Positions 25,574 to 30,657 of a stretch of DNA of 64,000 bases are shown here, one piece after another. How positions within the stretch are numbered: the first letter of the stretch is position 1; the number at the start of each line of letters is the position of its first letter. The position numbers were made by a program, and so were the translations under genes. The notes below the pieces were generated by a model. That model did no database searches and was not told where the DNA came from. It saw nothing but the letters and a program-made list of their open reading frames with translations. The stretch is from assembly GCF_003633755.1 (NCBI RefSeq), contig NZ_RBIL01000001.1:2093426-2157425 (forward strand). Direction: 5' to 3'. This DNA is from Solirubrobacter pauli. GTDB taxonomy: Bacteria; Actinomycetota; Thermoleophilia; Solirubrobacterales; Solirubrobacteraceae.

Positions 25574-25620
25574 CGCGGGAGATTGCCAGCAGCGTTCGGT
25601 TGAGGTGCAATCGACACAAG

Positions 25621-25640
25621 CGCCCCTTGAGGGAGGGGCG
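25621..25640 (+). promoter_or_regulatory. Leader hairpin of the M14 peptidase gene
   Basis: CGCCCCT, loop TGAGGG, AGGGGCG (7-bp perfect stem) followed by the T-rich GTTGTTCGTTTCC, 35 bases before the start codon. It has the form of an intrinsic terminator and may attenuate transcription into the gene. The core CCCTTGAGGGAGGG recurs upstream of the LVIVD-protein gene near 57106-57119. Confidence 0.4.
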
Positions 25641-25674
25641 GTTGTTCGTTTCCCTAGAGGGGGGTACCACCCAC

Positions 25675-28600
25675 ATGCGCTCACGCGCACCCGTGGCGCT
25701 GCTGGCCTGCTTGGCCGGTCTTTGCGTCACTCCCGCGGCCGCTTCGGCCGCCGAGCCTCAGACCCTGGCGCCGTATTCGGTCGACGCGACGCCGAGCCAG
25801 GCCGCAGAGCTCAAGAAGCAGGGCTTCGACCTCGAAGAGGGCGGCGCCGACGGCTCGCCCGGCTCGCAGGAGCTCGAGTTCGTCGCCACGCCCAAGCAGG
25901 TCGACGCGCTCGAGGCCGACGGCTTCGACGTCGAGAAGCTGGCGATCGACGCGCCGAAGGCCAAGTCGGCCGCGCTCGGCGACAGCCCGAACCCGTACTT
26001 CAACGTCTACCGCTCCTACATGGAGCCGGGCGGCATCGCGGACGAGATGCGGGCCATCGCGGCCGCCAACCCCGACGTGATGAAGCTCGAGCAGATCGGC
26101 ACGTCGACGCTCGGCAAGCCGATCCTCGCCATCAAGATGACGGAGAACGCGCGCACGACGCCGGACGGCTCGCGCCCCGCGATGCTCTTCTCCGCCGTCA
26201 ACCACGCGCGCGAGTGGATCGCCGCCGAGATGGGCCGTCGTCTGCCGGGCTGGTTCGCCGCCAACAAGAACGACACCAAGATCCGCGAGCTGATCAAGAC
26301 GCGCGAGCTGTGGTTCCTGCCGATCCAGAACCCGGACGGCTACGACTTCACCTTCACCTGCGGCACCGGCGTCAACCAGGTCAACTGCGACTACCGCACG
26401 ACCTCGCCGAACAACCGCTTCTGGCGCAAGACGTTGCGTGACAACGACAACAACGGCGTCTACGGCAACAGCGGCGACGGCGTCGACCCGAACCGCAACT
26501 ACCCGTCCAAGCGCGGCATCGACGAAGAGGGCGCCACCAACAGCCCCGGCGGCGAGACCTACCGCGGCCCGTACGCGCTGTCGGAGCCCGAGAACCTCGC
26601 GGTCGACCGTCTCCAGCGTCGCGTCAAGTTCAACGCGAACATCAACTACCACTCCGCGGGCCAGCTGCTGCTGACGCCGGTTTCTTACACGACCGACTAC
26701 TACCCGCCCGACTCGACGCTGTTCGACGCCATCACCGGCACCGACGGCGACGAGGCCGTGTTCCCGTACCGCTCGCAGCACTCGTCGGACCTCTACGAGT
26801 CCAACGGCGACACGATCGACAACGCGTACATGAACTACGGCATCATCGGCTGGACGCCGGAGATGGACACGTGCGCGACGCTCGGCGAGCCCAGCGGCTG
26901 CAACCAGTTCGCCTCGCCGGACGACGAGGAGATCGTCCAGGCCGTCTTCAACAAGAACCTGGCCTTCGCGCTCAACATCGCGAACTCGCTGCCGAACCTC
27001 GGTCGCCCGAAGGAGTTCGACAACGATCCGAGCCACTACAAGATCAAGGCGACCCAGGACATCCAGCTCAACCGCTTCGATGTCTCCTACGGCACGCCGC
27101 AGGTGGTCGAGGCCACGGTCCGCAAGGAGCTCGGCCCGTCGTTCGTCACGGCCACGGTCGTCGGCCAGAGCGGCAACTTCACCGGCCGCATGGAGGCCGC
27201 CGGCCCCGGCGAGCGCTACAACGAGGTCAAGGGCTACTACTTCGAGCGCCGCCGCGCGACCATCCCGGCGACGATCGGCACCCGCGCGATCCAGGCCGGT
27301 GACATCGTCAACGTCATCGTCAAGGCCGGCGGTCTGCAGCAGGAGTTCCGCTACCGCGTCGAGGCCAAGCACATCGACACGACCAAGAAGCGCGTGCTCG
27401 TCGTCGCGGCCGAGGACTACACCGGCGTCTCGCCGAACGTGACCCCCGGCTACGACACGCAGGCCCGGTACCTCACCCAGCACGTCTCCGCCCTGGAGGC
27501 CGCCGGCTACGAGGTCTCGGTCTACAACATCGACGCGCCCCCGGTGAAGGGTGGCTCGCCGAGCACGTACATCCAGCCGGCGATCAAGTACCCGACCTAC
27601 ATCGGCGTGCTCTCGCACTTCGACGCCGTCAACTGGTACTCGGGCGACGACTTCGCCCCGCAGGACCTCGATCAGACCAGCCCGCGCCGTCCGACGTCGG
27701 CCACGGCCCAGACCGGCTCGCTCGAGATGAGCTCCTGGTCGCACAAGCTGATGCTCGAGATGCGCGACTACGCCAACGAGGGCGGCAAGCTCATCGTCGA
27801 CGGTCGCAACATCCACCAGGCGTACACGTCCACGAGCGCGTCGCTGTCGGCGACGGGTCCGTACACGTGGACCCCGGACAAGCTGTTCGGCTTCTTCTAC
27901 CCGCCGAACAACTCGGGCGACGACGACCTGGCGGGCACGGCCTACCAGCGCTCGCGCACGATCTCCAACGACACGTGGCAGAACTACCTCGGCGTCGTCG
28001 GCCGCCAGGCCGGCATCGGCGCCACGGGCACGAAGTTCGACACCGCCCCGGTGACCCCGAAGGCGGGCTCGTTCCTCGAGGGCATGTCGCCCTTCACGGT
28101 CGACGCGTCGGCCGGCAACGACCCGACGCAGAACGCCGACGGCACCCCGCTGCCGCTGGCCAAGTCGCCGCTGCGCCTGCGCAACTGGACCAGCGTCTCC
28201 ATCCAGGAGCCGCTGCGCCAGGAGACGGTCCAGGCCGACTACACCACGACCCCGGCCCAGTCCGCCAACGGTGGCGCGATCATCTCGACGCGTGACGCCG
28301 TGACGTTCGGCTTCGGCCTCGAGCAGGTCGACGAGACGACGCGCAACGAGCTCGTCAAGCGCGCCATGACGCACCTGCTGCCGGCGACGCCGGACACCAC
28401 CGCGCCGACCATCGTCGGCTGGAAGTACCCGACGCAGAACTGGCAGGGCACCCCGGCCGACCCGGTCGACCTGGAGCTGACGACCTACGACGAGCGCGGC
28501 GACATGAAGGAAGTCCGCCTGTTCGCCAACGGCGTCTACTACGCGACGACCACGGTCTACCCGTTCCAGTTCCGCTACACCCCGCCGGCCTCGGCCGTCG

Positions 28601-29454
28601 GCACCACGGTCCAGCTGACCGCCGAGTCCGTCGACGCCGCCGGCAACGTGGCCACCACCGGCACGCCGCTGAGCATCGTCGTCAACGCCGCTCCGGCGGG
28701 TGGCACGTTCACCCAGGCCCCGGAGCCGGTCGCCAACCCGTCCATCACGGGCACCCCGACCGTCGGCTCGACGCTCACCTGCGTCAACGGCGGCTTCCGC
28801 AACACGCCCACCAGCACCTCGGTGGCGTGGCTGCGTGACGGCGTCGTCATCTCCGGCGCCGCGATCAACACGTACGTCGTGACCAACAGCGACATCGGCC
28901 GCGACATCACGTGCCGCTACACGGCGTCCAACTCGGCCGGCTCGGTCGAGGCGACGTCGAGCCGTGTCACGGCTTCGGCCGCCGGCACGCAGGGCCCCGC
29001 CGGCCCGGCCGGCCCCACGGGTCCGACCGGCCCCGCCGGCCCGAAGGGCGACACCGGCTCCACCGGCTCCACCGGCCCGGCCGGCCCGACCGGCCCCGTC
29101 GGTCCGATCGGCGCCACCGGCCCGGTGGGTCCCGCGGGCCCGAAGGGTGACAAGGGCGACAAGGGCGACACGCCCAACGTCCGCGTGACCTGCGACCTGT
29201 CGGCCGACGGCAAGACGATCGTCTGCACGATCACCGCCGTCCCGCCGACCGGCTCGGGCGCCAAGGCGGCCAAGGCCAAGCTGACGGGCTCGATCCGCCT
29301 GCAGGGCTCCAAGAAGACCACCACCAAGTCCGGCAACGGCAAGGTGACCATGAAGCTGAAGTCGACCAAGAAGCTGAAGAAGGCTCCGAAGGTCGTCATC
29401 AAGGTCAAGGGCACCACCGGCAAGTCCGTCACCACGACGGTCACCGCCAAGTAG
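25675..29454 (+). CDS. Secreted M14 zinc carboxypeptidase with Ig-like and collagen-like regions
   Basis: A 1259-residue exported protease; start ATG at 25675 ([25 protein letters not shown]), signal peptide about 1-25, propeptide about 26-105. The M14 domain (about 105-450) has the zinc ligands H177 and E180 ([11 protein letters not shown]), H326 (NINYHSAGQ) and catalytic E396 (GWTPEMD). About 450-900 is a beta-rich and glutamine-amidotransferase-like region ([11 protein letters not shown]). Ig-like modules at about 905-1100 follow, then some 20 Gly-X-Y triplets (1104-1165) and a Lys-rich beta domain to the end. It trims C-terminal residues from peptides outside the cell; the collagen-like stalk and basic tail may hold it at the surface or in a matrix. 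No recognised sorting signal is present. Confidence 0.85.
28984..29169 (+). repeat. Collagen-like Gly-X-Y coding repeat
   Basis: About 20 consecutive Gly-X-Y triplets, mostly GPA, GPT, GPV and GPK, ending in GDKGDKGD. Glycine is unbroken at every third residue. Such stretches can trimerise into a collagen-like triple helix. Confidence 0.8.
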
Positions 29455-29477: not shown

Positions 29478-29518
29478 GAACGCGAGGGCCCCGCCGCGAG
29501 GCGGGGCCCTCCGCGTTT
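29478..29518. terminator. Strong bidirectional terminator
   Basis: GAGGGCCCCGCC, loop GCGA, GGCGGGGCCCTC (perfect 12-bp stem, 29484-29511), extended with one bulge by AACGCG/CGCGTT and followed by TTT. It separates the convergent M14 and ArsR-type genes. Confidence 0.8.
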
Positions 29519-30125
29519 AGACGGCGCGCTTGAAGTGCAGGACCGCGAACTCGGTCGGGAACACCTCGGTGCCTGACTCGTTGTGCCGAGCAGCGCTCTC
29601 CTCGGCGATCGCCAGGGCCTGCTCCTGCGTCTTGGCCAGAAGCTTGTTGAGCTTCTTGAAGGCTTTCTCGTCGAGCTCGAGCGGCGTGCGGTTGAGCACG
29701 ACGTCAGGGTCCTGCAGGTGGCCGGCGTCGGCGGCTCCGCCGAGGTCGGTGACGAGGTCGGTCAGCGTCTCGCCGGCGAGCTCACCGCGGAGCCCGGACG
29801 GCAGGGTGCGCCACTGGTCGTCGTCGAGGTTCGGGCGTGCGGTCGCCCGGTAGAAGTGCTGCAGGGCGCCGCGACGCGGCTCCGTGCGCACGAGCTCGAC
29901 GCAGTCGTAGTCGCGGAGCATCCGCACGTGGTAGCTGACGACGCCGAGCGGCGCGCCGAGCTCCACCGCGAGATCGCCAGGGCTGGCGACACGCTCGCCC
30001 AGTCGCTGCAGGATGCGCGCGCGCAACGGGTGCGCGAGCGCCTTCGCGATCCGGGCTTCCGAGGTCTCCCCCGGTGGTCTCGTCCGTCCGGACGTACCGG
30101 ACGGGGTTGATGAACTGGTGGGCAT
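29517..30125 (-). CDS. ArsR-type winged-helix transcriptional regulator
   Basis: A 202-residue regulator from the ATG at 30125 (MPTSSSTPSGT); a TTG at 30137 is also possible. Residues about 25-85 are the winged helix (ALAHPLRARILQRLGERVASPGDLAVELGAPLGVVSYHVRMLRDYDCVELV). The remaining 115 residues are a predicted alpha-helical domain of unknown role (LDEKAFKKLNKLLAKTQEQALAIAEESAAR). It lacks the Cys pair of metal-sensing ArsR, so a non-metal signal or a purely structural role is likely. It is divergent from the structured gene-free region to its right. Target unknown. Confidence 0.8.
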   Translation of the reverse strand: MPTSSSTPSGTSGRTRPPGETSEARIAKALAHPLRARILQRLGERVASPGDLAVELGAPLGVVSYHVRMLRDYDCVELVRTEPRRGALQHFYRATARPNLDDDQWRTLPSGLRGELAGETLTDLVTDLGGAADAGHLQDPDVVLNRTPLELDEKAFKKLNKLLAKTQEQALAIAEESAARHNESGTEVFPTEFAVLHFKRAV

Positions 30126-30223
30126 GGTCGACCGCAAGCCTACCCGTCAGAGGACTTACCACCCTTCGACGATTGACGGACATGCGCCAAGTCGCTGGTT
30201 GACCACTCCTTCTGACTGCTGCA

Positions 30224-30237
30224 TGAAACCGGTTTCA
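30224..30237. promoter_or_regulatory. LacI-type operator-like palindrome
   Basis: TGAAACCGGTTTCA is a perfect 14-bp palindrome with the central CG and flanking AAAC/GTTT pattern typical of LacI/GalR operators. It lies about 100 bases upstream of the ArsR-type gene start. No LacI-family gene is in the window. Confidence 0.4.
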
Positions 30238-30240
30238 GCC

Positions 30241-30449
30241 GGGCAACGCATTCAGTGTGGTGGGGACACCTTGCGCTTGAGCCACGGGTCTGTTTACGAT
30301 CTTCATGCCTAGCCGGTCGGCATCCCTCACGGACCCCCCGAAAGAGCGACCCCTGCCGACCTCCCGCTCGGACCTGACCAGTCCAGCCCCCCGGCTGTAA
30401 GAGCGGCACCTCAGGCTGAGGGAGGGTCGGCGGTGCGCCGGCCCTCCCT
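30241..30449 (+). ncRNA. Candidate structured RNA in a gene-free region
   Basis: No convincing protein is encoded in 30138-30657. The stretch has stacked secondary structure on the plus strand: GGTG-GGGA-CACC with a GNRA tetraloop (30259-30270), ATGCC-9-GGCAT (30305-30323) enclosed by GGGTC/GACCC (30286-30336), then a 14-bp terminator hairpin at 30419-30449. A terminator here cannot serve either flanking gene: the ArsR-type gene points away and the alcohol dehydrogenase starts downstream. So a short transcript starting near the palindrome at 30224 is implied. No match to a named RNA family could be made from the sequence. Confidence 0.3.
30419..30449 (+). terminator. Orphan terminator hairpin
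   Basis: A continuous 14-bp stem (AGGGAGGG-TC-GGCG paired with CGCC-GG-CCCTCCCT, one G-U pair), loop GTG, followed by TTCATCTC. It is among the strongest hairpins in the window and has no upstream protein gene on its strand since 29454. Confidence 0.6.
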
Positions 30450-30657
30450 TCATCTCGAGACCGGACGCGCGCCACGGGCGCGCTGAGACGGGCGCGGCGC
30501 ACGCCGATTCAGCGGCGGATCGCCGGCCGGATTGCGTTGACTCCGCAGATTGTCGACGAGAACATGAGCTTCAGCGCGCGCGTCGGAAATGTGAGGGACG
30601 GACCGCGTCGACGTCCTTGAACGTGGTCGCACGTCGCAGACAGTTGACAATGGGTGG

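What the first reader, a model, noticed from the sequence alone, without database searches (positions are those of the whole stretch)
30241..30449. Orphan terminator and stacked hairpins imply an undescribed small RNA
The 520 bases between the ArsR-type gene and the alcohol dehydrogenase contain no gene but hold a GNRA-capped hairpin, a nested stem pair and a 14-bp terminator hairpin at 30419-30449. No plus-strand gene ends before it after the M14 gene's own terminator at 29511, so a transcript must begin in between. It could be a trans-acting sRNA or an attenuator-type riboswitch for the alcohol dehydrogenase operon. The segment GCCACGGGTCT...TAGCCGG faintly recalls the c-di-GMP-I aptamer 3' half, but conserved parts are missing.
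Basis: partly seen in the sequence, partly recalled or inferred. Interest (0 to 1): 0.6.

Follow-up and report, generated by a model that had tools for sequence, protein, structure and literature searches.

The report
Conserved small RNA in Solirubrobacter
Between two ordinary genes of a soil actinobacterium lies a roughly 145-base structured RNA gene with its own promoter and end signal; every sequenced species of the genus keeps it nearly unchanged, it matches no catalogued RNA family, and it is most likely a regulatory small RNA whose targets are still unknown.

Summary
Window 30305-30449 (+) is a single-copy structured RNA gene found in all 7 Solirubrobacter genomes held (6 distinct sequences). 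Excluding the most diverged genome, the core is 85-97% identical, while fourfold-degenerate sites of the neighbouring regulator gene are 54-70% identical and flanking intergenic DNA 48-71%. A promoter pair (TTGCGC, 18 nt, TACGAT; 30271-30300) is conserved while its spacer varies. The six sequences fold independently into the same shape: a long stem with an invariant ACCCC loop, a three-way junction with an invariant CUGACCA loop, and a 14-bp terminal hairpin. A few base changes are compensatory, and a sequence held out of the model scored 69 bits. No Rfam family matches. Where alcohol dehydrogenase is not adjacent, a convergent gene follows the RNA, which rules out a riboswitch or attenuator for the dehydrogenase operon. 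The segment likened to c-di-GMP-I lies in the promoter spacer. Single-base indels break every reading frame. Most likely this is an independent trans-acting sRNA; pairing through its C-rich loops, as in 6C/B11 RNA, is a lead only. Expression, targets and function are untested. It is a new genus-level family of a familiar kind.

The parts
30305..30449 (+). small RNA gene, about 145 nt (5' end inferred from the promoter; 3' end taken as the end of the hairpin)
   Evidence: conserved in 7/7 genus genomes, model and DNA hits; same fold in 6 sequences
30271..30276 (+). -35 element TTGCGC
   Evidence: conserved in six sequences (TTGCGC/TTGCGT/TTGCAC/TTGACC) at constant spacing while the spacer varies
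30295..30300 (+). -10 element TACGAT
   Evidence: identical in 5 of 6 distinct sequences, diverged in G002
30224..30237 (.). perfect palindrome TGAAACCGGTTTCA, candidate operator between the divergent regulator gene and the RNA
   Evidence: one site per genome, at this locus, in 5 of 7 genomes (one base changed in G004); absent in G002 and G005
30315..30361 (+). stem P1: GGTCGGCA (30315-30322) with TGCCGACC (30354-30361)
   Evidence: paired in 97.9% of cells; top pair A-U to G-C in one genome
30326..30346 (+). inner hairpin of P1 (CTC/GAG, CGG/CCG) with exposed loop ACCCC (30333-30337) inside an invariant run of six C
   Evidence: pairs and loop invariant in all sequences; loop unpaired with probability about 1 in all six
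30364..30406 (+). three-way junction closed by CCGCTC/GAGCGG
   Evidence: invariant pairs; predicted independently in all six sequences
30370..30384 (+). junction hairpin GGAC-CTGACCA-GTCC with invariant loop CTGACCA (30374-30380)
   Evidence: A-U to U-A compensatory change in two genomes, loop unchanged
30385..30396 (+). junction hairpin AGCC-CCCC-GGCT; stem kept, loop variable (UUCG tetraloop in G005)
   Evidence: stem 100% paired, loop sequence and length vary
30419..30449 (+). 14-bp terminal hairpin, probable intrinsic terminator with a T-poor tail
   Evidence: hairpin kept in all six, with wobble and compensatory changes
29517..30137 (-). divergent HTH_20 (ArsR-like) regulator gene (likely ATG at 30125), always next to the RNA
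   Evidence: Pfam HTH_20 39.6 bits; syntenic in all genus genomes

Best explanation
This is an independent small RNA gene. Transcription starts near 30305 from a housekeeping-type promoter that diverges from an HTH_20 regulator gene, and ends at a 14-bp hairpin, giving a compact RNA of about 145 nt. Shown by sequence: conservation, shared fold, some compensatory changes, conserved promoter hexamers, independence from the downstream gene, and absence of a conserved reading frame. Inferred: it acts in trans on mRNAs through exposed invariant loops (ACCCC in a six-C run, and CUGACCA), possibly by covering G-rich ribosome-binding regions as 6C/B11 RNA does in mycobacteria; and its transcription may be tied to the neighbouring regulator. 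The confidence given is for an independent trans-acting regulatory sRNA. I put about 0.9 on a transcribed structured RNA, and about 0.3 on loop pairing to ribosome-binding sites in particular.
For: In all 7 genus genomes, single copy. Core 85-97% identical among five sequences (76-78% against G002), versus 54-70% at fourfold sites and 47-71% in flanking intergenic DNA. Held-out G002 found at 68.9 bits, E 8e-10. Six independent minimum-energy folds agree, plus-strand full-length z -2.9 to -4.6. 99.4% of cells pair and 5 pairs have changes on both sides, against shuffled means of 94.4% and 1.4. -35 and -10 hexamers conserved with a variable 18-nt spacer. Downstream genes differ or are convergent. 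Both invariant loops are predicted largely unpaired.
Against: No expression data. Only six distinct sequences, and most helix pairs never vary, so covariation support is thin; three of the five two-sided changes sit in one hairpin of one genome and could reflect a one-base register shift. T-poor tail. No enriched or conserved target: GGGGGGTCC-ATG finds nothing shared except the element's own antisense, and CTGGTCAGG-ATG hits (38) do not exceed the reversed-pattern control (52). The ACCUCC stretch is mostly base-paired.
Confidence: 0.65

Rival explanations
1. A standalone structured RNA that works by binding a protein or the polymerase (6S-like or protein-sequestering), not by base pairing with mRNAs.
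For: Invariance covers stems, internal loops and hairpin loops alike; 5' and 3' ends may pair next to the terminal hairpin; no conserved mRNA target was found.
Against: No match to 6S or any other Rfam family; the branched shape differs from the long bulged hairpin of 6S RNA (own knowledge).
Confidence: 0.2
2. A cis-acting attenuator or riboswitch in the leader of the alcohol dehydrogenase/acyl-CoA dehydrogenase operon.
For: In the window the dehydrogenase starts 208 nt after the hairpin on the same strand.
Against: In G003, G004 and G005 a convergent decarboxylase gene follows the RNA, and in G002 another convergent gene; in G003 and G004 the dehydrogenase lies beyond the decarboxylase. The RNA stays while this neighbour changes.
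Confidence: 0.03
3. A leader or attenuator of the HTH_20 regulator gene on the minus strand, or an antisense RNA to it.
For: The regulator gene is the one neighbour kept in all genomes, 164-188 nt away.
Against: Plus-strand promoter hexamers are conserved; the core folds better against shuffles on the plus strand than on the minus strand in every genome; terminal-hairpin variants are G-U on the plus strand; DNA between element and gene is poorly conserved; close paralogues of the regulator lack the element.
Confidence: 0.06
4. A leaderless small protein gene (ATG at 30305, 31 codons in this genome) or a dual-function RNA.
For: The first transcribed bases are ATG in 4 of 6 sequences, and actinobacteria often use leaderless starts (own knowledge).
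Against: Single-base indels shift every frame between genomes; two genomes have CTG; peptide lengths and sequences diverge while the RNA does not; no Pfam match.
Confidence: 0.04
5. A DNA-level element only, such as a shared bidirectional terminator, with no functional RNA body.
For: The hairpin sits between convergent transcription units in four genomes.
Against: The 105 bases before the hairpin are as strongly conserved as the hairpin, with pairing-preserving changes.
Confidence: 0.02

Closest known systems
6C RNA / B11 (Rfam RF01066, actinobacterial trans-acting sRNA)
   Same: High-GC actinobacterium; short stand-alone RNA; exposed C run in a hairpin loop; 6C/B11 loops pair with G-rich ribosome-binding regions and repress mRNAs (PMC10470900; PMC4046766).
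   Different: No RF01066 hit here or in relatives; only one of the two C runs is conserved; a three-way junction with an invariant CUGACCA loop; closed stem with internal loop.
c-di-GMP-I (GEMM) riboswitch
   Same: Short string resemblance only (GCCACGGGTCT...TAGCCGG).
   Different: No model hit; the string spans the promoter spacer and the RNA start; spacer not conserved.
6S RNA
   Same: Stand-alone RNA whose ends may pair.
   Different: Branched shape, no model hit.

Membership tests
6C RNA (RF01066) | match to the RF01066 covariance model | tested here: not met
   no hit to the element at E up to 10 in the window or up to 1 in five relatives; none over cut-off in 7 whole genomes
6C RNA (RF01066) | two stem-loops, each with about six cytosines | tested here: not met
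   first C6 run invariant; second present only in own and G003, replaced in the other four sequences
6C RNA (RF01066) | C-rich loop pairs with ribosome-binding sites of target mRNAs | not testable with these tools
   needs experiment; simple conserved-target pattern searches gave nothing
c-di-GMP-I riboswitch | match to the Rfam model and aptamer located in a leader | tested here: not met
   no hit; the resembling segment lies in the promoter spacer; the dehydrogenase is not downstream in cis in most species
cis attenuator of the dehydrogenase operon | element precedes the regulated gene in every genome that has it | tested here: not met
   convergent gene follows in G002, G003, G004 and G005
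trans-acting sRNA (general) | own promoter and terminator, no reading frame, conserved independently of the downstream gene | tested here: met
   by sequence only, and the terminator is by hairpin only (T-poor)
trans-acting sRNA (general) | discrete transcript that regulates mRNAs elsewhere | not testable with these tools
   no expression or mutant data available

The most novel reading that the evidence does not exclude
A new class of stand-alone structured RNA, specific to Solirubrobacter, in which the invariant nucleotides of the ACCCC inner hairpin and the CUGACCA junction loop form a binding site for a protein or small molecule, so that it acts as a non-pairing RNA cofactor or sensor controlled together with the divergent HTH_20 regulator.
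Probability: 0.13. Interest if true: 0.65.

Novelty: new member of a known kind. Interest (0 to 1): 0.42.

Why it matters
Searches of open-access papers pairing Solirubrobacter or Solirubrobacterales with small RNA, noncoding RNA or riboswitch terms gave no described regulatory RNA of this group, and no canonical 6C RNA was found over cut-off in the 7 Solirubrobacter genomes. A single-copy, genus-wide RNA with two invariant exposed loops is a ready experimental handle on post-transcriptional control in these desert and soil actinobacteria. Its genus-limited range also makes it a case of a young, strongly constrained sRNA next to a fixed regulator gene.

Tried and rejected
Rfam at gathering and permissive thresholds on the window and five relatives: nothing relevant. 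6C family over the 7 genus genomes: none over cut-off. Model searches of 146 family genomes, 399 class genomes and 396 phylum genomes: no credible member outside the genus; the two best outside hits (34.8 and 31.5 bits) lack parts of the core and align poorly. A DNA-pattern scan of the GTDB species collection gave 12 loci: 6 Solirubrobacter records plus 6 others in which the model finds nothing. Upstream DNA of the regulator's paralogues and of its family homologues: no element. Leaderless small ORF: frame not conserved. Conserved loop targets: none convincing.

Full report
What is there. The window lies in a 7.14-Mb genome. The naming of the window's own species is inference. Bases 30138-30657 separate a minus-strand HTH_20 (ArsR-like) gene from a plus-strand zinc alcohol dehydrogenase followed by an acyl-CoA dehydrogenase.

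The observation. The 14-bp hairpin at 30419-30449 is exact. Its tail is T-poor, and the consensus terminator scan does not list it; the tails of the relatives are also mostly T-poor and variable. The nested stems exist. The GAAA that might cap a hairpin is not kept in relatives.

Conservation. A DNA search finds the region in all seven genomes of the genus, one copy each. Two of these (G001, G006) are identical here, so six distinct sequences remain. Core identity is 85-97% among five of them and 76-78% to the most diverged, G002. In the same genome pairs, fourfold-degenerate sites of the neighbouring regulator are 54-70% identical and the rest of the upstream intergenic DNA 47-71%. Selection is therefore acting on the element itself.

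Promoter and ends. In five of six sequences TACGAT at 30295-30300 is identical, and a TTG-type hexamer at 30271-30276 is kept in all six at the same distance, while the 18-nt spacer varies. This places the start near 30305-30307 (inferred). The terminal hairpin closes all six RNAs.

Structure. RNAalifold and six separate minimum-energy folds give the same architecture: P1 with an inner CTC/GAG-CGG/CCG hairpin and ACCCC loop, then a three-way junction closed by CCGCTC/GAGCGG that holds a CUGACCA-loop hairpin and a variable-loop hairpin, then the terminal hairpin. A pairing of the 5' UGCC with bases just before the terminal hairpin is plausible but inconsistent between genomes. Plus-strand z-scores for the full RNA run from -2.9 to -4.6; the core alone scores better on the plus than on the minus strand in every genome. 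A model built from five sequences recovered the sixth at 68.9 bits. Counted on the model alignment, 99.4% of cells pair; five pairs have two-sided changes against 1.4 in shuffles. Three of those five are in one hairpin of one genome and may be a register shift. The clear compensatory ones are A-U to U-A in the CUGACCA hairpin (two genomes) and A-U to G-C at the top of P1; P1 otherwise, the inner hairpin and the junction stem never vary, so covariation does not test them. Wobble changes in the terminal hairpin favour the plus strand, but over the whole, imperfect alignment A1 the count is 6 to 5 and not decisive.

Not coding. Single-base insertions and deletions shift the frame between genomes, two genomes start with CTG instead of ATG, and the 31-codon frame of this genome is not kept.

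Independence from the neighbours. In G003 and G004 the order is M14 peptidase, regulator (minus), RNA (plus), pyridoxal-dependent decarboxylase (minus; Pyridoxal_deC), alcohol dehydrogenase (plus), acyl-CoA dehydrogenase. G005 has the decarboxylase and no dehydrogenase in the stretch read; G002 has another convergent gene. In the window's genome and in G001/G006 the decarboxylase is missing, which brings the dehydrogenase next to the RNA. A leader element of the dehydrogenase operon is thus ruled out as the general role. The constant neighbour is the divergent regulator. A 14-bp palindrome, TGAAACCGGTTTCA, at 30224-30237 occurs once per genome and only here in five of seven genomes (with one base changed in G004), and is absent in G002 and G005. 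It is a candidate operator; which protein binds it is unknown.

Range. No credible member was found in 139 other genomes of the family, in an even sample of 399 genomes of the class, or in 396 of the phylum. Those large searches use stricter filters and score only a few candidates per genome, so a diverged relative could be missed. A pattern scan of GTDB genomes outside the genus gave only chance loci.

How it most likely works. An independently transcribed sRNA acting in trans is the simplest reading. The exposed invariant ACCCC (within six C) and CUGACCA loops are the natural contact sites. In mycobacteria 6C/B11 RNA uses C-rich loops to pair with G-rich ribosome-binding regions (PMC10470900); the 6C name comes from two stem-loops with about six cytosines each (PMC4046766). 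Here that is a lead by analogy: the 6C model does not match, and the second C run is not conserved. Simple searches for conserved complementary sites before start codons gave no enrichment over control and no shared plausible target. A protein-binding role is the main rival.

Verdict. A real, undescribed, genus-specific structured RNA, very probably a regulatory sRNA: a new family of a known kind. Function, targets and expression are open.

Noticed in passing
window 30224-30237: Perfect palindrome TGAAACCGGTTTCA between the divergent regulator gene and the RNA, one copy per genome and only at this locus in 5 of 7 genomes (G004 with one changed base); resembles a LacI-type or similar operator, binder unknown.
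   Followed up: partly
L131, L138, L145, L151 near position 1501, minus strand (G000:C1 at 96458, 122251, 123894, 201700): Dispersed repeat of at least about 120 bp in this genome with a hairpin CGGCCCCGC-TGGTCAG-GCGGGGCCG, in at least two copies just after a stop codon; its loop is the exact complement of the RNA's CTGACCA loop. Found by searching for that complement, so possibly coincidence.
   Followed up: partly
L103 3125-4471 and L104 4115-5440 versus window 30450-30657: A pyridoxal-dependent decarboxylase gene between the RNA and the alcohol dehydrogenase in two relatives is missing in this genome and in G001/G006.
   Followed up: yes
G000:C2:2021193-2021783 and G000:C1:605562-606143: Two close paralogues (84% and 78%) of the HTH_20 regulator in the same genome; other genus genomes carry such paralogues too. 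None of the upstream regions read holds the RNA.
   Followed up: partly
window 25600-29454: Large M14 zinc carboxypeptidase with a C-terminal collagen-like Gly-X-Y stretch (Pfam Collagen).
   Followed up: no
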